From: an uncultured Atopobiaceae bacterium
GTDB taxonomy: Bacteria; Actinomycetota; Coriobacteriia; Coriobacteriales; Atopobiaceae
Direction of reading: 5' to 3'
Assembly: GCA_944322145.1 (NCBI GenBank)
Contig: CALUNW010000002.1
Location: 124,001-188,000, forward strand
DNA: 64,000 nucleotides
The number at the start of each line of letters is the position of its first letter. The stretch's first letter is position 1. Positions 37,930-58,383 of this stretch are shown in pieces. Made by a program: the position numbers and the translations under genes. The notes beneath the pieces were generated by a model. It was not told the origin of the DNA. It ran no database searches and was given only the letters and a program-made list of their open reading frames with translations.

Positions 37930-39028
37930 CTACTCTCCAAAGTGCTCTGCGATTTGGCGCATGCGCTCAGATTGAGCCACACCAAACGGACAGCGGGTGT
38001 CGCAGTGGCCGCAGCCAACGCATTCGCTCGCGTGGTGCTCGAGGTTGTGGTAGTGCTCCACGGCAAGCTTATCGTCAACGAGCGCGAGGTCGTAGTACTT
38101 GTTCACCAGTCCTATCCGGATGCCCACAGGGCAGGGCTGACAATGGTTGCAGTAGACGCAGCTCGCGATTCGGCTCTCAGGCGCCATCTCGGCGAGCTCG
38201 GAGTGGTCGCGCTCGACTTTCGGCGCGTCAAAGAAACCGAGAAGTGTGCGCAGGTCGTCAACGTTGCGCACGCCTGGCAGCACTGTGAGCACTCCAGGGC
38301 GGTCGAGCGCGTACTGGATGCACTGGTAGCGCGTGAGCGCGCGGCCGAAGGGGGACTTAGCGGCGTCGAGTAGCTGACCTCCCGCAAAGGGCTTCATGAC
38401 GGCAATGCCCACCCCGTGGCTCTCGAACTCGCGGTAAAGCGCCATTCGGTCGCTCGCCTCGCCGCGCCCGTACTCCGACTCGTCTGTGTAGTCGTACATG
38501 GGGTTCAGGCTGAACATTCCGAGGTCCATCTCGCCTGTAGCGAGGAAGCTCCGGGCAATCTCCACGTTGTGAGTCGAGAAGCCCAGGTGGCGGATGGTTC
38601 CCTCGCCACGCCTGCGCAGTGCGTACTCCCAGACGGGCCCGTTCATGACCCGGTCGAAGTCGGCGTTCTCGTCGATGCAGTGGATGAAGGCGAAGTCCGC
38701 GTACTCCACCCCCCGGGATTGCCAGGTGCCGTTCGAACTCCTCGATGCTCGCCTTGGGATCCGTGGTCCAGGTGTAGTCGTGGCTGCGGTAGTCCGCTCC
38801 CAGATGGACCTGCACATGGACCTCGTCGCGATGACGCGCGATGGCGCGGGCCATGGGTTCGAAAGGCATGTCGTTGGTGGTCACGTAGTCAAAGTGGTTG
38901 ACGCCGGCCTCGATGGACTCGTCAACGGTGCGCTCGATCTCTGCGACCGACCCCTCGTGGAGGCTGCCGGCACCAAGGCCGATGACGCTGATCTTCTCGT
39001 CGCCGTGCGGCAGGGTGCGGTACTCCAT
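37930..39028 (-). pseudogene. Aldo/keto reductase with 4Fe-4S domain, frameshifted
   Basis: The intact family member would have about 365 residues: an aldo/keto reductase barrel (MEYRTLPHGDEKISVIGLG, with the catalytic block NHFDYVTTND) and a C-terminal two-cluster ferredoxin part (CVYCNHCQPCP and CVGCGHCDTRCPF). The N-terminal third is read in one frame from ATG 39028 (GGAGGG upstream) and the rest in another. The frames meet near 38709-38720, at a CCCCCCGGG run; removing one base restores HLAIPGVEYADF. This is either a real inactivating slip or a sequencing error in a homopolymer. Because both halves are well conserved and have no other damage, an error or a very recent mutation is likely. 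Confidence 0.82.
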
Positions 39029-39030
39029 AG

Positions 39031-39501
39031 TCAACCCTCCAATGACTCCAACGAAAGCGTGACGGCAACGTCGCCCGTGCCGAGCGCGTCCTCCCAGCCC
39101 GTGAGGTCGATGACGTGTGCGAGCGGTGTGTAGCTCCAGCTGTTGGTCCCGTAAAAGATGACGATCTGATTACCCTGGTAGAGCACGACGTCGCCGGGCT
39201 CGGTGGTGATCGGCGCGTCCTGCGTGGGTAGCTCGCTCCCCAGCGGCCCCACCTTCTCAAAGCCGGCGTAGTCGGAGAGCGAAACCGCGACCGGCCCCCC
39301 TTCCATCATCTCCACAAGTGCCGTCGCAGCCGAATTGCTCTCAAGCGAGGCGGTGAAGTCAACCCCGTTCACGTTGACGGTCATTTTCGTCACGGTAGCC
39401 TCCTCTGTGACGGTTTTGGCTGAGTGTGTCTCCTCTTCCGCGGGCGAAGACAGAGTGCAACCCACGAGCAAAGACGCGGCGAGAAGGACGACCGCAAGCA
39501 C
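39031..39501 (-). CDS. Lipoprotein with cyclophilin-like fold
   Basis: The 156-residue protein has a lipoprotein signal with lipobox LLVGC (Cys 15), a short spacer, and a domain (about 40-156) of the cyclophilin-like type seen next to flavodoxin and aldo/keto reductase genes: MTVNVNGVDFTASLESNSAA, then GDVVLYQGNQIVIFYGTNSWSYTPLA. Family members have no proven activity; prolyl isomerase activity is not expected. GTG 39501 is preceded by AGGAGA. The aldo/keto reductase gene follows 2 bp away, and DUF3737 precedes 7 bp away, so the three are one transcript. Confidence 0.8.
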   Translation of the reverse strand: MLAVVLLAASLLVGCTLSSPAEEETHSAKTVTEEATVTKMTVNVNGVDFTASLESNSAATALVEMMEGGPVAVSLSDYAGFEKVGPLGSELPTQDAPITTEPGDVVLYQGNQIVIFYGTNSWSYTPLAHVIDLTGWEDALGTGDVAVTLSLESLEG

Positions 39502-47540: not shown

Positions 47541-47568
47541 GATTTGCCCCTGCCAACGGGTGATGTGC
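47541..47568 (+). promoter_or_regulatory. Conserved upstream motif, copy 1
   Basis: GATTTGCC, then CC, then TGCCAACGGGTGATGTGC lies 112 bp before the first SLH gene start. A near-identical copy lies at 50086-50112, 80 bp before the second. It may be a shared operator or promoter element. Confidence 0.6.
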
Positions 47569-47679
47569 ATTCCTGGCGTCGTCTCTACAGTTGATGGTGT
47601 GCGCGATGCGCCCTCCCCTGGCGTGGGACGGCCTCGCCGCGCTCCCCCCGAGCCTCGAGACGTAAGGAGGAAGCACGAC

Positions 47680-49641
47680 ATGAGAAGAAGGTTGTTTGGA
47701 CTGGCGTGCGCCCTGGCACTGTTCGTTGGGCTGATGCCCGTGCCCGCGCTCGCCCTGGAAGGGGTCTACGTGGCCCTGGGCGACAGCATCGCCGACGGGT
47801 ATGGCCTCGCCGAGGACGAGCAGGCGTTCCCGGAGCTCGTCGCCGCCGAGCGCGGGTACGAGCTCAAGACGGTCACCTCATCCGAGGGCCTGACGTCCGC
47901 CGATCTGCTCGCGCAGCTAAGCGACGCGAGCGTGGCTGCCCAGGTGGCGTCCGCCGACGTCATCACCATCACGGTCGGCGGCAACGACCTCATGGGCGCG
48001 CTGTATGACTACCTCGCGGCGCAGACGCTCGGCACCATGACCGCCGAGCAGATCGAGGCGATGCTGACCGGCGGCAGCGGGGCGCTCGACCTTGGCAATC
48101 CTGCGGTCTCCCTGGTCATGGGCAAGCTTGCGGACTTCCCCGCCTCCGAGCAGGCGACCGAGGCGATAGCGACGCTGGGGACCAACCTCGCGGACATCGT
48201 TTCCGGCATCAAGGGAGCTAACCCTGACGTGACCATCGTCGTCACCAACCAGTACAACCCCTACGGCCATCTCGACGATGTCGTGGTCGCCGCCGTCGTC
48301 TCCGCCTTCGACCAGGGCGTTCAGACGCTCAATGCCGCGCTGCAGAATCTTGCGACGCCTGCCGGCGTGCCCGTCGCCGACGTATATGCCCTCTTCGACG
48401 CCTCCGCGGCGGCACCCTGCAACGCATGGGTCGAGGGCACGATGGCCAACCTCGACTTTCATCCCAACGCTCTTGGCCACGAGCTGATCGCTCAGGCGGT
48501 CGAGGCGCAGCTGCCTGCCGCTGATCCGGACCCCGAGCCGACCCCGGACCCCGAGCCGACTCCGGATCCCGAGCCCGGTCCCAACTGGACCGAGGTCGCC
48601 CTTGAGGTCGCCGGCGCCGAGCCGGGCGCGACCGTGACGGTGGACATGGACGGAACGACCGAGGTCCCCGCCGCCGCGCTCGCTGCCCTTGCCGGACGCG
48701 ACGTGACGGTCAGGCTCGAGGTGAGCGCTGGCGTTGCTTGGGAGATCGACGGTGCCGACGTCCCGAAGGACGTCGAGCTCTCCGGCATCGACCTCGGAAT
48801 CGAGCTCAACACCACCGGCATTCCGTCCAATCTGGTCGGCCTCGTCTCCGGCGCTCTCGGCTCCGTGCAGGTGACGCTGGCCCACGACGGCCCCTTCGGC
48901 TTTGAAGCCACGCTCGTCGTGTCCCTTGGTGATGTCCCCGCCGGCGTCTGCGCCAACGCTTACAGCTACGACGAGGCATCCCAGTCGCTGCGCTACGAGG
49001 GCACGGCCGTCGTGACCCCTGAGGGCGAGGCGCGTCTCACGGTCGACCATGCCTCCCATTGGCTCGTCTCCCTCGATGTGCGCTCGCATGCCCTTTCCTT
49101 TGCAGACGCCGAAGAGGGCCGGTGGTACTCCGAGGCCGTGCGCTGGGCGTGGCTGTCCGGCGCCATGCGCGGCTACGGCGACGGCACGGTCTTCGGCGTG
49201 GGCGACGACCTCACGCGCGCCCAGATGGCCGGCGTGCTCTATAACCTGGCGGGCAAGCCCGACGTCTCCACTGCGGGCCTGCCGTCCGACTGCAATCCGA
49301 ACGAGTGGTACGCCGAGTGCGTGGCATGGGCGCTCTCCGAGGGCGTCTTCAACGGCTACGGCGACGGGTCTACCTTCGGGCCCGACGACCCGCTCACCCG
49401 CGAGCAGGCCGCGGCGGTGCTCCACAACGCCGCGGGGGAGCCGGAGGCGGAGGCGGACCTGATGTCCTTCTCGGACGCGGACGAGGTGTCCCCCTGGGCG
49501 CGCGAGGCGCTGGCCTGGGCCGTGAGCAGCGGCGTCGTCAACGGCGTCGACGTCGAGGGCGGGCGCGAGCTCCAGCCCGGGCGCGCCTGCACGCGCGCCG
49601 AGATGGCGGGCCTCATGATGAACCTCGCCGCCCGCGGCTAG
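47680..49641 (+). CDS. Secreted SGNH/GDSL hydrolase with three SLH domains
   Basis: The 653-residue surface protein has a signal peptide (1-25, ending PVPALA), an SGNH hydrolase domain, a Pro-rich linker (PDPEPTPDPEP, about 284-305), a beta-rich domain (310-465) and three S-layer homology repeats (470-653; GAMRGYGDGTVFG, GVFNGYGDGSTFGPDD, GVVNGVDVEGG). SGNH residues are the Ser in VALGDSIADG (36), GGND (about 99) and the Asp/His pair in DFHPNALGH (about 260). It is probably an esterase or lipase held on the wall by SLH binding. TAAGGAGG precedes ATG 47680; a longer frame upstream has no signal peptide start. The SLH-coding end is nearly identical in DNA to that of the 58144 protein. Confidence 0.9.
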   Translation: MRRRLFGLACALALFVGLMPVPALALEGVYVALGDSIADGYGLAEDEQAFPELVAAERGYELKTVTSSEGLTSADLLAQLSDASVAAQVASADVITITVGGNDLMGALYDYLAAQTLGTMTAEQIEAMLTGGSGALDLGNPAVSLVMGKLADFPASEQATEAIATLGTNLADIVSGIKGANPDVTIVVTNQYNPYGHLDDVVVAAVVSAFDQGVQTLNAALQNLATPAGVPVADVYALFDASAAAPCNAWVEGTMANLDFHPNALGHELIAQAVEAQLPAADPDPEPTPDPEPTPDPEPGPNWTEVALEVAGAEPGATVTVDMDGTTEVPAAALAALAGRDVTVRLEVSAGVAWEIDGADVPKDVELSGIDLGIELNTTGIPSNLVGLVSGALGSVQVTLAHDGPFGFEATLVVSLGDVPAGVCANAYSYDEASQSLRYEGTAVVTPEGEARLTVDHASHWLVSLDVRSHALSFADAEEGRWYSEAVRWAWLSGAMRGYGDGTVFGVGDDLTRAQMAGVLYNLAGKPDVSTAGLPSDCNPNEWYAECVAWALSEGVFNGYGDGSTFGPDDPLTREQAAAVLHNAAGEPEAEADLMSFSDADEVSPWAREALAWAVSSGVVNGVDVEGGRELQPGRACTRAEMAGLMMNLAARG

Positions 49642-49650
49642 CTTCGATAC

Positions 49651-49710
49651 CGGGCCGGTTCCGAACGTTTCGGATGACAGTAAACGACCGGGGCCGGCCC
49701 GCTATTCTCG
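49651..49710 (+). terminator. Hairpin family D, after the first SLH gene
   Basis: CGGGCCGGTTCCGAACGTTT (49651) pairs imperfectly with the AAACGACCGGGGCCGGCCCG side ending at 49701, then CTATTCTCG follows. The stem starts 10 bp after the stop codon. The same hairpin follows the second SLH gene at the same distance, so I read it as a terminator. Confidence 0.7.
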
Positions 49711-49732
49711 CCCGCCCGCGGCTGACGCCCGG

Positions 49733-49804
49733 CGCCGGGTAAGAGCTTCTTGCGAGAACGGGGCCCGATTGGGCTCCGTTCTCGCATATTTCTCTTACTC
49801 GGCG
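49733..49804. repeat. Hairpin family C, copy 1 (72 bp)
   Basis: Arms begin GCCGGGTAAGAG and end CTCTTACTCGGC; the centre has TGCGAGAACGG / CCGTTCTCGCA. A nearly identical 72-bp copy is at 58312-58383. Confidence 0.88.
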
Positions 49805-50191: not shown

Positions 50192-53100
50192 ATGAGAAGA
50201 CGTCTGCTTCTGCTGCTGGGAACCGTTCTGCTGTGTCTGGGCATCATGCCCGTCACCGCGTATGCTGCAAGGACGGAAGGGTACGAGGTGTCGACCGACT
50301 GGGTCACCGGCACCACGACGTACCGGTTCACCGACCTCGAGAAAGTCGAACGTTTCTTAGTGAAGCCGGAGGGTGACGCGATCCTCGACTTTACGGAGAC
50401 CAGTTCGTTGGGCTCAACCTCGTCGCTTGGCCTCTACGTCACTCCCCAGAAGGAGGGGGCGCACGTCACGATTCGCGGCGCAGAGGGCACGAGCTACGGC
50501 AACGTCACTCTGAACGTAGATGGTTCTGTCGCGGGCGTCACGCTCCAGGACTTTCAGACACGGTCCAGCTTCGTGAACTATGGAGGTGAGGGAGCGTGCA
50601 AGATCGTCTACGACGGTAATTGCGTTATCGACCTTCAGCTCGGAGGCGCCGACTATATTGTGTGCGCCGCGGACGACGCGTCCCACCTCGATCTTGGGTT
50701 TGCGTCGCAGGGCGAGAAGGGCAGCGTGACGTTCTCGGGCAACCTCTCCGTCGAAAGCTCGCTGACGAGCGGGTCCATGACCATCAAGGACGCCCTTGTC
50801 AGCTTTGGTACGCGGGAAGATGACAGCGAAATCATTGCCACGAAGCTGCGCATCGAGGACTCCACTATCGGCGGGGTCGGTCACATCAACTCGGTCGAGG
50901 TCCCGAACCATGCTGAAGAAAACGATGCCCTCGACGAATCATACATCACAATCGCCAATTCCCAGATCTCCTTTGACGCGGACGTGTTTGAGGGGAACAG
51001 CTCTTCCACGGTGCTGGGAAACACGGAGGCCATCAAGATTGAGGGCAGCACGGTCACCGGCCTAGAGATGACTGACAGCTACGGGTGTCTCGGCGGCATC
51101 TTCAAGAGCATTGTCATCAATAACTCCGAGGTCTACGCGAAGAGTGAATATGCCGCCGCCATCGGCCCGAGCGACTCTGCGTACGGGTCCAGCGGCTTCT
51201 CGAAGTTCGGCTTCGAGAAGCCGTCCATCATCATCGAGGACAGCGTCATAGAGGCTGCGAGCACGTATGGCGCGGCCATCGGCATGCCGCGGCTCCCTGA
51301 GTCTGACCTCGCATACGATCGCCCTCAGCTGAGCGTCACCATCTCCGGCACGAGCGACGTCACCGCCACGAGCGTCCGTTCCGCCGCCATCGGCGCGAGC
51401 TCCAGCAAGGAGTACGGCGACGTCGGAGGAGTCGAGATCGAGGTCGGCGCGGGTGACATCACCTGGGGCCGCTCCTCCGACGCGAGCCCGCTCGGCAGGT
51501 TCCTCAGCCTGCTGGGCCTCGCCGGCGAGTCGAGCCTCGAGGGCGATCTCGCCACCGCCGCCGAGCTCCTGAGCGGCTGCGCCGTCACCATCGAGGACTC
51601 CCCCACTATCAACGCCAAGTCCGGCGTCATGGCCGTCTACGCCGACAGCGTGAGCGTGACGGACACCAACCTGGTGCAGGACACCATGGTGATTGCAGAC
51701 GGCGGCGACGAGTACTCCATCTACCCGATGGAGACGCCGGGCGCCGTGAAGATCGGATCGGAGGTCATCGGCGAGCTCGGCTACGGCTATGCCTCGGTGG
51801 CGGCGACGGGCGTTTCCGCGCAGTCGGACGCGAAGATGACGTTCGGCGATGCCGCCCTGACCGACGCCGAGAAGGGCGGCCAGACGTTCGGCGTCTCCGA
51901 TGCCGGCTTCCAGCGCCTCTTCACCACGCCGACGCTCGAGCTCTCCGGCACGGTCGGCATCACCGGCGCGAGCAACGGGACCGCCCCGGCAAACACGACG
52001 CTGGGGCTCGACCTGAGCGCGCTCGTCCCCTCGCGCGCCGCCATCGCCAGCGCGGGCACCTATGATGGCCTGACCTTCCAGTGGCATCGCGACGGCGCTC
52101 CGATCTCCGACGCGACCTCCAGCACGTATGGGCTCACGAGCGCCGATGACGGCGCGGTCATCACCTGCGTCGTGAAGGGCAGAGGCTTCTTCATGGGAAG
52201 CGTCACGAGCGACGCGGTCCTCGTGAGCTCGCAGCCCACGGTGGCCGCGCCGACCCTGGAGAGCCGCACCGCGACCAGCATCACGCTCAAGATCGCGGGC
52301 GATGGCTACGAGTACCGCTGCGTCGGCAACGGTGACTGGCAGGCAAGCCCGACGTTCTCGGAGCTCGCGTCCGGCACGACCTACGCCTTCCAGCAGCGCA
52401 ACTCCCCCGACAGCGTCAGCGCGCCCGCGTCCTTCTCGACCCTGTCCTTAACGCCCCCCGAGGGCGACTTCGCGATCGACTACGTGAGCGAGACGCTCTC
52501 CTTCCCGAGCGGCGTCTACCTCTATCGCGACGCCGCCTGCACGAGCTGCCTCAACAAGAGCTCCTCCAAGACGAGCATCGACATCAGCGGTCTCATCGGC
52601 GACGCCGAGGTCACCCTCTACGCCCGCTACGCGACGGTCGACCCCGCGGACACGGACTCCGTGACCGAGGTCACCATCCCGGCACGCCCGGCGGCACCCG
52701 AGCTGGCCGAGGGCGCGCTCGCGGTGACGTCCGACAGCATCAGACTCACGGGCACCGACGGAGTGGCCTATCGCCTGCTCTCGGGCGGGCGCGTGCTCCA
52801 GACGGCGACGGGCGACGGATCGACCACCATCACGTTCGCTGACCTCTCTCCCGCCACCACGTACACGATCGAGATGCGCGTCGAGGCGTGCAACGACGCC
52901 CCCGCCACCTTCCGCTCCGAGGTTGCCGAGAAGGACGTCACGACCGCCGCCTCCGCGCCCACCGCGCCGCAGTTCAACGTGCAGGCCGAGCTCGTGGATG
53001 AGGGTTATGCGTCCGTGCGCGTCGGCTTCTCCTGGGACCACCCCGCGGCCAACGGCGCAACCATCGACGGCTACGCCGTCTACGCGCAGGAGGGCGAGGG

Positions 53101-53836
53101 CGAGCTGTTCCTGGTCTGCGAGGTCGCCGCTGACGCGACCTCGTGCGACGTGACCGCGGGCTCGGACGGCGTCCTGCGGGCCGGCGGGACCTACGACTTC
53201 ACCCTGCGGGCGAGCTGGTCCGCAGGCGACGCATCCGGCGAGGTGACCTCCGAAGAGGTCCGGCTGACGCTGCCGAGCCTGCGTCCCGACCCCGCGGCCT
53301 TCACGTTCGACTACCTCAACGAGACGCTTGCCGTCCCCGCGGGCGTGAGCCTCTACGAGGACGCGGCGTGCACGACGACGGTTTCTCTGGACGATAAGAA
53401 CGTGGCGGACATCACGCCGTACATCTCCGCGTACGGGACGGCGGCGCAGTCGCTGTATGCCCGCTCTGACTCTGCGGCAGACGGCACCGGCGCCGTCACA
53501 GAAATCGAGATTCCTCGCCGTCCGTACGTGAGCGACGTAGACCGTGACGAGATGACCGTGACGCACGACTCCCTTACGGTGCGCAAGCGTTTTCTCAACC
53601 TGAACGAGTGCTCCTATGAGCTGAAGCTGGGCGCAAATGTCATCAGTCCGACAACCGACAACGACAACGTGTTCATTTACACGGGGCTGACGCCCGGCAC
53701 GACCTACTCCCTCGTCATCACGAAGTCCGCAAGCGAGAGCTCGTTCAGCTCGTCCGTCACGCAGGAGATCGTGACCAAGGACGTCACGGAGAAGGCCTCC
53801 GACCTGCTGGTGCCCGCGGCATCTCGTCCCAGCTGA
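50192..53836 (+). CDS. Large secreted surface protein, N-terminal part (ends at in-frame TGA)
   Basis: The 1214-residue product has a signal peptide (1-26, MRRRLLLLLGTVLLCLGIMP...) and a beta-helix or carbohydrate-binding region (about 60-560) with repeated DSTIGG/NSEVYAKSEYAAAIG-like turns. Then fibronectin type III/Ig-like repeats follow (650-1200), in which a module with ETL, P-x-GV-x-LY and DAACT occurs twice (about 770 and 1035). It ends at TGA 53834-53836, but the same frame continues without another stop to 58144 and there reaches SLH domains. As read, this part has no wall anchor and would be released. The whole frame (2651 codons) is best seen as one gene broken by a single stop. Confidence 0.75.
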   Translation: MRRRLLLLLGTVLLCLGIMPVTAYAARTEGYEVSTDWVTGTTTYRFTDLEKVERFLVKPEGDAILDFTETSSLGSTSSLGLYVTPQKEGAHVTIRGAEGTSYGNVTLNVDGSVAGVTLQDFQTRSSFVNYGGEGACKIVYDGNCVIDLQLGGADYIVCAADDASHLDLGFASQGEKGSVTFSGNLSVESSLTSGSMTIKDALVSFGTREDDSEIIATKLRIEDSTIGGVGHINSVEVPNHAEENDALDESYITIANSQISFDADVFEGNSSSTVLGNTEAIKIEGSTVTGLEMTDSYGCLGGIFKSIVINNSEVYAKSEYAAAIGPSDSAYGSSGFSKFGFEKPSIIIEDSVIEAASTYGAAIGMPRLPESDLAYDRPQLSVTISGTSDVTATSVRSAAIGASSSKEYGDVGGVEIEVGAGDITWGRSSDASPLGRFLSLLGLAGESSLEGDLATAAELLSGCAVTIEDSPTINAKSGVMAVYADSVSVTDTNLVQDTMVIADGGDEYSIYPMETPGAVKIGSEVIGELGYGYASVAATGVSAQSDAKMTFGDAALTDAEKGGQTFGVSDAGFQRLFTTPTLELSGTVGITGASNGTAPANTTLGLDLSALVPSRAAIASAGTYDGLTFQWHRDGAPISDATSSTYGLTSADDGAVITCVVKGRGFFMGSVTSDAVLVSSQPTVAAPTLESRTATSITLKIAGDGYEYRCVGNGDWQASPTFSELASGTTYAFQQRNSPDSVSAPASFSTLSLTPPEGDFAIDYVSETLSFPSGVYLYRDAACTSCLNKSSSKTSIDISGLIGDAEVTLYARYATVDPADTDSVTEVTIPARPAAPELAEGALAVTSDSIRLTGTDGVAYRLLSGGRVLQTATGDGSTTITFADLSPATTYTIEMRVEACNDAPATFRSEVAEKDVTTAASAPTAPQFNVQAELVDEGYASVRVGFSWDHPAANGATIDGYAVYAQEGEGELFLVCEVAADATSCDVTAGSDGVLRAGGTYDFTLRASWSAGDASGEVTSEEVRLTLPSLRPDPAAFTFDYLNETLAVPAGVSLYEDAACTTTVSLDDKNVADITPYISAYGTAAQSLYARSDSAADGTGAVTEIEIPRRPYVSDVDRDEMTVTHDSLTVRKRFLNLNECSYELKLGANVISPTTDNDNVFIYTGLTPGTTYSLVITKSASESSFSSSVTQEIVTKDVTEKASDLLVPAASRPS

Positions 53837-56800
53837 GAGACGGTCTCCTACGACTTCTCCGACCTGCTGGGCGAGGCCGAGATCAGGGGCGTGAGCGAGG
53901 TCGCGGACAGTGACAACATCCTCAACTATGCCGGCTACGACACGACCGGCAAGAAGGCCGTCAACCTGCAGCTCCGCGCTGCCTCCGTGGGCGCGTCCGC
54001 CACGGTCGAGGTCGAGGCGCAGCTCCCGGATGACGGGGACTACCTCGTCATCACCCTCACGCTCAAGGCCGTCGACGTGATGGCCGAGGGCGCGGACGGC
54101 ACCTACTGGGTGCGCGCGGATCTCGCCGACGAGGAGGTCGCGGCGGTAGAGTCCGCCCTCGACGAGCTGCTCGACGGGGCCGACCTCCTGGGCGCCTTCG
54201 ACCTGACGCCGCTCGACCCCGTCGGCGGCGAGCCGGCCAGCGAGGCCGAATCCACGCAGGTCTCGTGGGCACCCGAGGAGAGCGTGACGACGACGGGCAC
54301 CTTCGAGGTCTATCGCATCGATGACGGCGCCGCCTCGGAGCTGCAGGGCGTGACCCAGGAAGGAGCCGAGGTCAGCTTCGCCGCCGAGGGCGCGGGCGGA
54401 TGCTACGCCGTCGTCTTCAGACCCACGACGTATGAGGTCTCTGTCGCGCAGACCCTGAACGGCTCCCTCTCCGTTGACAGGACCGCCGCAAAGGTCGGCG
54501 AGACGGTGTTCGTGACCGCCTCGCCCGCGAGCGGCTACAAGGTCGAGTCCATCTCCGCGAGCTACGGCAGCGCGTCCCTTACGCCTGCCCCTCAGGCCAA
54601 CGGTACCTACGCCTTTGAGATGCCCGCCGCCGACGTGACGGTCTCCGCGATGTTTGCCCTGATACCTCCCGCGGCCCCTTCGCTGAGCGTCACGTCCGTC
54701 AGCACCGACGGCGCCGTGGTCGTCACCTGGGAGCTCGCGGACGACGGCGCGGTCGTCACGGGCCTCTCCCTCGCGGTGAGCCAGGACGGCCAGCCCGTCG
54801 AGGGCTTCCCCATCGAGATTCCCGTGGGCGAGACCAGCCGCACGCTGACCGGCCTCACGCCGGGCGCGACCTACGAGCTCACGCTGACGGCGAGCAACGG
54901 CGAGGCGAGCGCGACGTCCGCGGCCGTCGAGGTCAACGTCCCCGAGCCCGAGGACCCCACTTATGCCGTCAGCGTTGCCGATGGCATCAAGAACGGCTCG
55001 CTCACGGTCTCCCTCGGGGAGGCAACGGCTGGCGAGAAGATCATCATCACGCCGCGTCCGGCGACGGGCTATGAGGTCGCATCGGTCGCCGTTGCCGAGG
55101 CCGACAGCGGCGCGAGCGTTGCCGTGACGCCGGACGTGAGCGGCGGCTACGTCTTCGAGATGCCCGCCGCCGACGTGACCGTCTCCGCCTCCTTTGACCC
55201 GATCGCCCCTGCCGTCCCTCAGCTCGCGGCCGAGTCTGGCGCCGAGGAAGGCTCCCTGGTCGCAACCTGGACGCTGAAGGACAACGGTGCGGTCATCACC
55301 GGCTACGAGCTCGCGGTCACGCTTGACGGCAAGCCCGTCGAGGGCTCGCCCTTCTCGCTTGCCGCCGATGCCACGTCCCACACGCTGTCCGGCCTCACGT
55401 CGGGCGCGACCTACGTGCTCACCCTGACGGCCTACGACAACGGTCGGGGCACCGCATCCGAAGCTGTCACGGTGACGGTCCCCGAGACCCAGTACGAAAT
55501 CGCGATCTCCAAGGTCGAACACGGGTCCTTCTCGGCCTCCTACCAGAGCGCCGCTGCGGGGACCGACGTCACCATCGTCGCGAGCCCCGACGAGGGCTAC
55601 GAGGTCGCCTCCATCGCCGTGACGACGACGGGCGGCGCGGACGTGCCCGTCGAGGGCATGAGCTTTGAGATGCCCGCGGCAGACGTCACCGTCTTCGGAG
55701 CGTTCGCCCCCATCGAGCCCGAGCTCTCTGCGTTCGACGCCGCATATGATGAGGGTACGGACGCGGTGGTCGTCAGCTGGGCGCTGGCGGACAACGGCGC
55801 GGTCGTCACCCGCTATGAGCTCGCGGTAACGCTTGACGGCAAGCCCGTCGAGGGCTCGCCCCTCTTGCCTGCCGTGGACGCCACGTCCTATGAGCTGACC
55901 AGCCTCGCGCCGGGCGCGACGTACGAGCTCACGCTGACGGCCTACAACGACGGCGCGAGCGCGACTTCCGACACTGTGGAGGTGACGGTGCCTGAGCCCG
56001 TGGCGCCCACCTATGCCGTGGACGTCGCGACCGTGGCGCACGGGTCCTTCTCGGCCTCCCCCGCGAGCGTCGCGGAAGGCGATCCCGTCACCGTCACGGC
56101 GAGCCCCGAGGAGGGCTACGAGACGGCGTCCGTCACCGTGACCGACGCGGACGGTGCGCTTGTGCAGGTGACCGAGCAAGCGGACGGCACCTTCGCCTTC
56201 ACGATGCCTGCTTCCAACGTCACCGTGTCCGGCGCCTTCCAGAAGGTCTCAGGCGACGACGACCCCGACGAGAACGACCTGAACGCACTTCTCGCCCAGG
56301 CCTTCGAGAAGGGCAACAGCTTCGAGGCCATCACGCTCAGCTCGGGCACATACAAGCTGACCGCGGATCTCTCCGTCGCCGACCTCGCGGGAGCTGACTC
56401 GGGTCTCATGACCACGAGCCTCTACATTGGCAACGACGCGGACGGCGCGACGGTCGAGCTCGACCTGCAGGGCCACACGCTGGATGCCGAGGACTGCGCG
56501 CTCATCGTGACGGAGGGGTCCACGCTCAACCTCACCGACTCGGTCGGCGGCGGCTCCATCAGCGGCAGGAAGGGCCTCTCCTTCACCGACGCGGGCACGG
56601 AGTATGCCTATGCGGGCGGCATCGCGGTCTATGGCACCCTCAACATGAGCGGCGGGTCCATCACCGGCAACCAGGCCGCCGGCGACGGAGTGCTCGGCTA
56701 CGGCGGGGGCGTCTACGTCTTTGGCGGCGGCATCTTCAACATGTACGGCGGGACGATCTCCGGCAACACGGCCTCGACGCTCGGCGGCGGCGTGGCGGTG

Positions 56801-58144
56801 CGCTCCGCGGCGGACACGACGCCGGTTCCCAACCCGCTCTACGTGGGCGACGCCGAGATCAGGGACTGGAACGAGGTCGACGGCGGCGACGTTGTCGCGG
56901 GGCTCTCGATCGGGCTGCTCGGTGCGGGGCCGGGGACCGAGGCCGGCAGCTCAGCCGGCACGTTCAACCTCTATGGCGGCACCATCACCGGAAACACGGC
57001 GCCGGTCGCAGGCGGGATCTACGCGGGCGGCTCCGTGACCATCGGGACGGACGGAACCACTCCCGCGGCGGTCTCCGTCACCGGCAACACGTCCGGGAAC
57101 CTCTACGTCCCCGCAGGGGTCACGGTCGAGCTCTCCGCGACGCCTGCCGCTGGCTCCAAGGTCGGCGTGACCATGGAGAAGGCCCCGGGCCTGTTTGCGA
57201 CCGCGACCAGCGAGGTTGCGAGCGCTTCTCGCGCATGCTTCACGAGCGATAGCGGGACCTACTACGTGACGTCTCAGCAGGACGGCCTTGCGCTGGCATA
57301 CGTGCCCGTGGCGCCCACCTACGAGCCCGAAATCGAGGTGCCCGGGGGCGGCGGCACCGTCACGACCAACCCTCGCTACCCCGAGCAGGGCGACGAGGTC
57401 ACGATTACGCCCGTGCCCGACGAGGGCAAGACGGTCGATACCGTTCAGGTTGTCGACAAGGACGGCGAGCCCGTCGAGGTCGTCGACAACGGTGACGGCA
57501 CCTGGACGTACAAGCAGCCGGCCGGTTCTGTGACGATCACGGTCACCTTTGTCTGCGACGGCGGGGAGCTCTGCCCGAGCGCGCACCTCGTGGACGTCGA
57601 CCAGTCGAAGTGGTACCACCTCGCGATCGACTGGGCCGTCACGCACGGCGCGATGCGCGGCTACGGCGACGGCACGGTCTTCGGGCCGGATGATGTGCTC
57701 ACCCGCGCCCAGATGGCCGGCGTGCTCTACAACCTGATGGGCCAGCCTGAGGCCGTGGTCGACCGGCTGCCGGGCGACTGCGACGCGTCCTCCTGGTACG
57801 CCGAGTGCGTGGCGTGGGCGCTCGAGGAGGGCGTCTTCAACGGCTACGGCGACGGGTCTACCTTCGGCCCCGACGACCCGCTCACCCGCGAGCAGGCGGC
57901 GGCGGTGCTGATGAACGCGGCGGAGCTCTCCGGCGCCGACACGTCGGCGCGCGCGGGGCTGTCCGGCTACCCGGACGCCGGCGAGGTGTCCGGCTGGGCC
58001 CGCGAGGCGCTCTCGTGGGCCGTCGCCGAGGGCGTGCTCCACGGCGTCGACGTCGAGGGCGGCGGCCGCGAGCTGCAGCCCGGGCGCGCCTGCACCCGCG
58101 CCGAGATGGCGGGCCTCATGATGAACCTCGCCCTCCGAAGCTAG
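53837..58144 (+). pseudogene. Large SLH surface protein, C-terminal part after the in-frame stop
   Basis: The frame continues from the upstream gene directly after the TGA. A possible GTG restart at 53891 has no Shine-Dalgarno and no signal peptide, so this part is likely not exported alone. From that GTG the 1417 residues hold four pairs of an InlB B-repeat-like module (GYEVASI ... FEMPAADVTVSA at about 180, 360, 535, 715) and a fibronectin type III-like module (DNGAVVTxYELAVTLDGKPVEG), then a beta-helix (790-1105; GGxITGNxA turns), one more B-repeat, and three SLH repeats (1230-1417). It is probably an adhesin. Sequence error at 53834, a real pseudogene, or stop read-through are the three options. 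Confidence 0.7.
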
Positions 58145-58153
58145 CGTCGATGG

Positions 58154-58278
58154 CGGGCCGGTTCCGGACGTTCCGGTACTCGGAAACGACCGGAGCCGGC
58201 CCGTTATTCTCGCCACCCGATGCCGGGCCGGTTCCGGACGTTTCAAGACGCCAAAACGTCCACGACCGGCCCGCTATT
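58154..58278 (+). terminator. Two tandem D hairpins after the second SLH gene
   Basis: Both begin CGGGCCGGTTCCGGACGTT and end with a GCCGGCCCG or GACCGGCCCG arm, followed by TTATTCTCG and CTATTCTTG. The first begins 10 bp after the stop. They resemble the single D hairpin after the first SLH gene. Confidence 0.7.
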
Positions 58279-58311
58279 CTTGGTCGCCTCGCCCCTCCTG
58301 GCGCCCGAGCA

Positions 58312-58383
58312 CGCCGAGTAAGAGTTATCTGCGAGAACGGGGTCCGATTGGGCTCCGTTTTCGCATATTTCTCTTACTCGGCG
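58312..58383. repeat. Hairpin family C, copy 2 (72 bp)
   Basis: CGCCGAGTAAGAG (58312-58324) and CTCTTACTCGGCG (58371-58383) are exact inverted arms; the centre TGCGAGAACGG / CCGTTTTCGCA is shared with 49733-49804. Confidence 0.9.

What the first reader, a model, noticed from the sequence alone, without database searches (positions are those of the whole stretch)
50192..58144. A 2651-codon SLH adhesin frame broken by one TGA
The frame is open from 50192 to 58144 except TGA 53834-53836. Upstream there is a signal peptide but no anchor; downstream there are SLH anchors but no signal peptide. Domain logic and unbroken codon use on both sides show one gene. It may be a recent nonsense mutation, a read-through switch releasing versus anchoring the protein, or a sequencing error.
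Basis: partly seen in the sequence, partly recalled or inferred. Interest (0 to 1): 0.6.

Follow-up and report, generated by a model that had tools for sequence, protein, structure and literature searches.

The report
Surface protein gene cut by stop
A large cell-surface protein gene of a gut bacterium related to Olsenella carries a single stop codon in its middle, while two sister species have the same gene whole, so this is most likely an ordinary recent loss-of-function mutation (or a sequence error) rather than a special switch.

Summary
The frame 50192-58144 (+) is 2,651 codons long, and its only internal stop is TGA at 53834-53836. The two pieces are one gene. Two same-genus genomes, Olsenella sp. 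An293 and an uncultured Atopobiaceae MAG, hold collinear orthologues that are open from signal peptide to SLH anchors, about 2,320 codons, with a sense codon where the window has TGA. Nothing nearby could express the second half as an anchored protein: no second signal peptide, no plausible ribosome site or promoter. Nothing supports programmed read-through: the stop is not conserved, the site is a variable linker, the downstream RNA folds no better than shuffles, SelB and tRNA-Sec do not reach their cut-offs, RF2 is present, and there is no slippage tract. Both halves evolve alike, so the break is recent. Most likely it is a recent nonsense mutation giving a truncated, secreted, unanchored product (analogous to truncated Listeria InlA); a consensus error is the main rival and cannot be excluded without reads. 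Other genes of this genome also look broken (a frameshifted aldo/keto reductase in the window, two SLH genes with a frame change near the signal peptide). Low interest.

The parts
50192..53836 (+). 5' part of the gene: signal peptide, predicted beta-rich (probably beta-helix) N-terminal region, fn3-like domains; ends at the internal TGA
53834..53836 (+). the in-frame TGA; aligned with sense codons in two orthologues, in a variable linker
53837..58144 (+). 3' part of the same gene: linker domain, divergent InlB B-repeats (Flg_new_2) and fn3 modules, a second glycine-rich repeat region, three SLH domains; ends at TAG 58142-58144
57593..58111 (+). three SLH anchor domains (C2:181593-182111 of the assembly)
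49751..49786 (+). terminator-like hairpin between the preceding SLH-lipase gene and this gene
58330..58365 (+). near-identical terminator-like hairpin after the gene; none lies on this strand near the TGA

Best explanation
A single SLH-anchored surface protein gene of an Olsenella-like bacterium (Atopobiaceae) carries a recent in-frame nonsense codon at 53834. Shown: one continuous frame, orthologues intact in two sister species, selection pattern and codon use alike on both sides, no second start or promoter signal. Inferred: translation ends at the TGA and yields a 1,214-residue precursor. The signal peptide exports it, but without the SLH domains it cannot bind the wall polymer, so it is released or degraded. 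The downstream 1,435 codons are not translated to any useful level. The net effect is loss of the anchored protein in this strain.
For: Two same-genus orthologues are open throughout: 2,317 and 2,331 aa frames, 62% and 51% identical over the 322 residues spanning the stop, no stop inside. Named relatives: Olsenella sp. An293 and an Atopobiaceae MAG. Pairwise dN/dS against the closer orthologue is 0.55 upstream and 0.45 downstream, and window-unique replacements downstream (93 of 1,076) do not exceed those of the intact orthologue (98). With unconstrained drift the 3' part would have a 95% chance of a further stop by about 0.028 substitutions per site, so the break is young. The alignment to the closer orthologue has no gap at the site, so no length change is involved. 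No SECIS-like fold (z 0.65). SelB and tRNA-Sec matches are below cut-off, RF2 present. 17 of 47 gene-like frames in the window end in TGA. No sigma-70-type promoter match and no good in-frame start with a ribosome site after the TGA.
Against: Reads, population frequency and expression are not available. The assembly shows other breaks, so errors are possible. No second strain of the same species was available for comparison.
Confidence: 0.62

Rival explanations
1. The TGA is a consensus (sequencing or assembly) error, or a minority variant chosen in the assembly; the real gene is intact.
For: All else in the gene is intact and under the same constraint, and orthologues are intact. The 142 kb sampled from this assembly shows further breaks: an aldo/keto reductase frameshift at about 38,710-38,734 whose closest relatives are mostly full length, and two SLH genes with a frame change near the signal peptide.
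Against: The change is base-for-base, not an indel, and the site is no homopolymer. It lies deep inside a 299 kb contig, and the gene has no second copy that could be mixed up with it. Single-base consensus errors that happen to make a stop are rare compared with natural nonsense mutations (general knowledge).
Confidence: 0.3
2. Programmed or leaky read-through of TGA acts as a switch between a released and an anchored form.
For: The downstream part is kept open and the domain order would make such a switch meaningful.
Against: No orthologue has a stop there. The downstream RNA folds no better than shuffles. SelB and tRNA-Sec do not reach their cut-offs, RF2 is present, and TGA terminates many genes. 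The base after TGA is G, not the leaky C (general knowledge).
Confidence: 0.04
3. Two separate genes: a secreted protein and an independently started downstream protein.
For: A GTG at 53891 lies just after an AGGGG.
Against: The AGGGG is only one base from that GTG, there is no signal peptide after it, and no promoter match. The downstream SLH repeats need export. Relatives have one continuous gene.
Confidence: 0.03

Closest known systems
Listeria monocytogenes inlA with natural premature stop codons
   Same: A nonsense codon inside a large exported surface protein removes the C-terminal anchor and leaves a truncated, secreted protein; found in natural strains (PMC2532693, read, citing Nightingale et al. 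2005).
   Different: LPXTG rather than SLH anchor, a pathogen's invasin, many independent stops and tested strains; here one genome, one stop, function unknown.
Intact orthologues in Olsenella sp. An293 (NZ_NFIT01000006) and Atopobiaceae MAG BRZ_NT bin22 (CALUHH010000043)
   Same: Same signal peptide, N-terminal region, linker domain, second repeat region and three SLH domains.
   Different: No internal stop; about one rather than three fn3/InlB-B module pairs in the middle.

Membership tests
SLH-domain surface proteins | C-terminal SLH repeats | tested here: met
   three SLH repeats over the Pfam cut-off, 57593-58111; they lie behind the stop
SLH-domain surface proteins | N-terminal Sec signal peptide in the same frame | tested here: met
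   read by eye from the translation, and conserved in both orthologues; no predictor was run
SLH-domain surface proteins | pyruvylated wall polymer (CsaB) to bind | tested here: inconclusive
   only sub-cut-off CsaB matches in the genome
gene inactivated by a nonsense mutation | intact orthologues in close relatives | tested here: met
gene inactivated by a nonsense mutation | stop confirmed in reads or in an independent isolate | not testable with these tools
   no reads and no second strain of the species held
selenoprotein / TGA recoding | SelB and tRNA-Sec in the genome | tested here: not met
   matches only below cut-off
selenoprotein / TGA recoding | stop conserved and followed by an RNA hairpin | tested here: not met
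   sense codons in orthologues; fold z-score 0.65
phase-variable gene by slipped-strand mispairing | simple repeat tract at the switch and a change of length | tested here: not met
   no tract at 53834 and a gap-free alignment to the closer orthologue at the site

The most novel reading that the evidence does not exclude
The TGA is genuine and leaky, so a small share of translation reads through and the strain makes both a released and an SLH-anchored form from one gene.
Probability: 0.04. Interest if true: 0.6.

Novelty: new member of a known kind. Interest (0 to 1): 0.15.

Why it matters
It shows that the automatic reading as two proteins (one secreted, one cytoplasmic with SLH domains) would be wrong, and that loss or release of large surface proteins through a point mutation may occur in this genus. 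If 3 of the 12 SLH genes of this genome are really broken, turnover of the SLH surface set would be worth a strain-level survey; if they are errors, the assembly needs caution.

Tried and rejected
Read-through or selenocysteine: rejected. Reassigned TGA: rejected, since RF2 is present and TGA ends many genes. Separate downstream gene: rejected. Phase variation by repeat slippage: rejected, no tract and no gap. Long-dead pseudogene: rejected by equal constraint and absence of further stops. A genome-contig scan with the 322-residue piece alone found nothing; a second scan with the three-sequence alignment gave named relatives. A scan of the 142 kb sample for breaks by codon signal found only the reductase frameshift; it did not flag the known TGA and cannot see breaks near gene starts, and in G012 it listed four stop-separated frame pairs that may just be neighbouring genes, so it gives no reliable rate. 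The N-terminal model (pLDDT 62) is all-beta and gave no significant PDB match. ARAGORN calls a tRNA-Ser at 54072-54167 inside the gene that Rfam does not support.

Full report
Observation. The frame 50192-58144 on the + strand has 2,651 codons including the final TAG. The only other stop is TGA at 53834-53836. Codon-position GC is coding-like on both sides. Upstream are a signal peptide, a beta-rich N-terminal region and fn3 matches. Downstream are fn3 and divergent InlB B-repeat (Flg_new_2) modules and three SLH domains.

One gene. A search of 31 genomes of the genus with the 322 residues spanning the stop found two orthologues without any stop: G017 (62% identity, 2,317-residue frame) and G012 (51%, 2,331-residue frame). 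A search of 140 genomes of the family found no others. The full-length alignment is collinear from the signal peptide to the SLH end. It crosses the TGA without a gap, in a variable linker, where both relatives have a sense codon. By name the relatives are an Atopobiaceae MAG and Olsenella sp. An293, so the window is very likely from an Olsenella-like species. The genome search shows no second copy of the region in this genome.

How old. dN/dS against the nearer orthologue is 0.55 upstream and 0.45 downstream. The count of replacements unique to the window copy is not raised downstream compared with the intact orthologue. Under unconstrained drift, ignoring indels, a further stop in the 1,435 downstream codons would be expected with 95% probability by about 0.03 substitutions per site. 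The break is therefore recent, or not real.

Recoding. The 80 nt after the TGA fold no better than shuffles. SelB and tRNA-Sec matches stay below their curated cut-offs. Release factor 2 is present. 17 of 47 gene-like frames in the window end in TGA. No relative has the stop. A read-through switch is therefore unlikely. No repeat tract lies at the site, so slipped-strand phase variation is unlikely too.

Second start. The first in-frame start after the TGA is GTG 53891, with an AGGGG one base away, which is too close for a ribosome site. No sigma-70-type match was found, and no signal peptide follows. Near-identical terminator-like hairpins stand before (49751-49786) and after (58330-58365) the gene, and none stands on this strand near the TGA. 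This fits one transcription unit.

Mutation or error. The site is deep inside a long contig, is a base-for-base change and is not in a homopolymer, which slightly favours a real mutation. But the same assembly shows other breaks: an aldo/keto reductase gene in the window with a frame change at about 38,710-38,734, whose closest relatives are mostly full length, and two SLH genes elsewhere whose signal peptide and body lie in different frames. Real decay and assembly error both fit this. My estimate is 0.62 real, 0.30 error.

Consequence if real. Translation stops after 1,214 residues. The product keeps its signal peptide and loses all SLH anchors. By analogy with truncated InlA of Listeria (PMC2532693) it would be released. 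This step is inference.

Verdict: a correct reading of one broken gene, of an ordinary kind.

Noticed in passing
window 37933-39054, minus strand: Aldo/keto reductase with 4Fe-4S domain split over two frames, with the change at about 38,710-38,734; closest relatives in four same-genus genomes (G010, G028, G003, G026) are full length, while G027 and G007 also have short frames.
   Followed up: partly
L044 (G000:C4, SLH gene at 231137-231463 minus) and L045 (G000:C5, SLH gene at 183457-183981 minus): Two further SLH genes whose signal peptide lies in another frame than the body; with the finding this makes 3 of 12 SLH genes broken in this assembly.
   Followed up: partly
window 54613-56165: fn3 + InlB B-repeat module pair present about three times (period 540 and 510 nt, 71-80% identical), about once in the two orthologues.
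   Followed up: partly
window 58148-58365 and 49645-49786: Dispersed palindromic intergenic repeat with a terminator-like hairpin; 31 matches in this genome, 24 in G018, 17 in G017, few or none in most others of the genus.
   Followed up: partly
window 47560-49641: GDSL lipase with SLH domains directly upstream; its SLH end is about 80% identical in DNA to that of the finding's gene, a shared anchor cassette.
   Followed up: no
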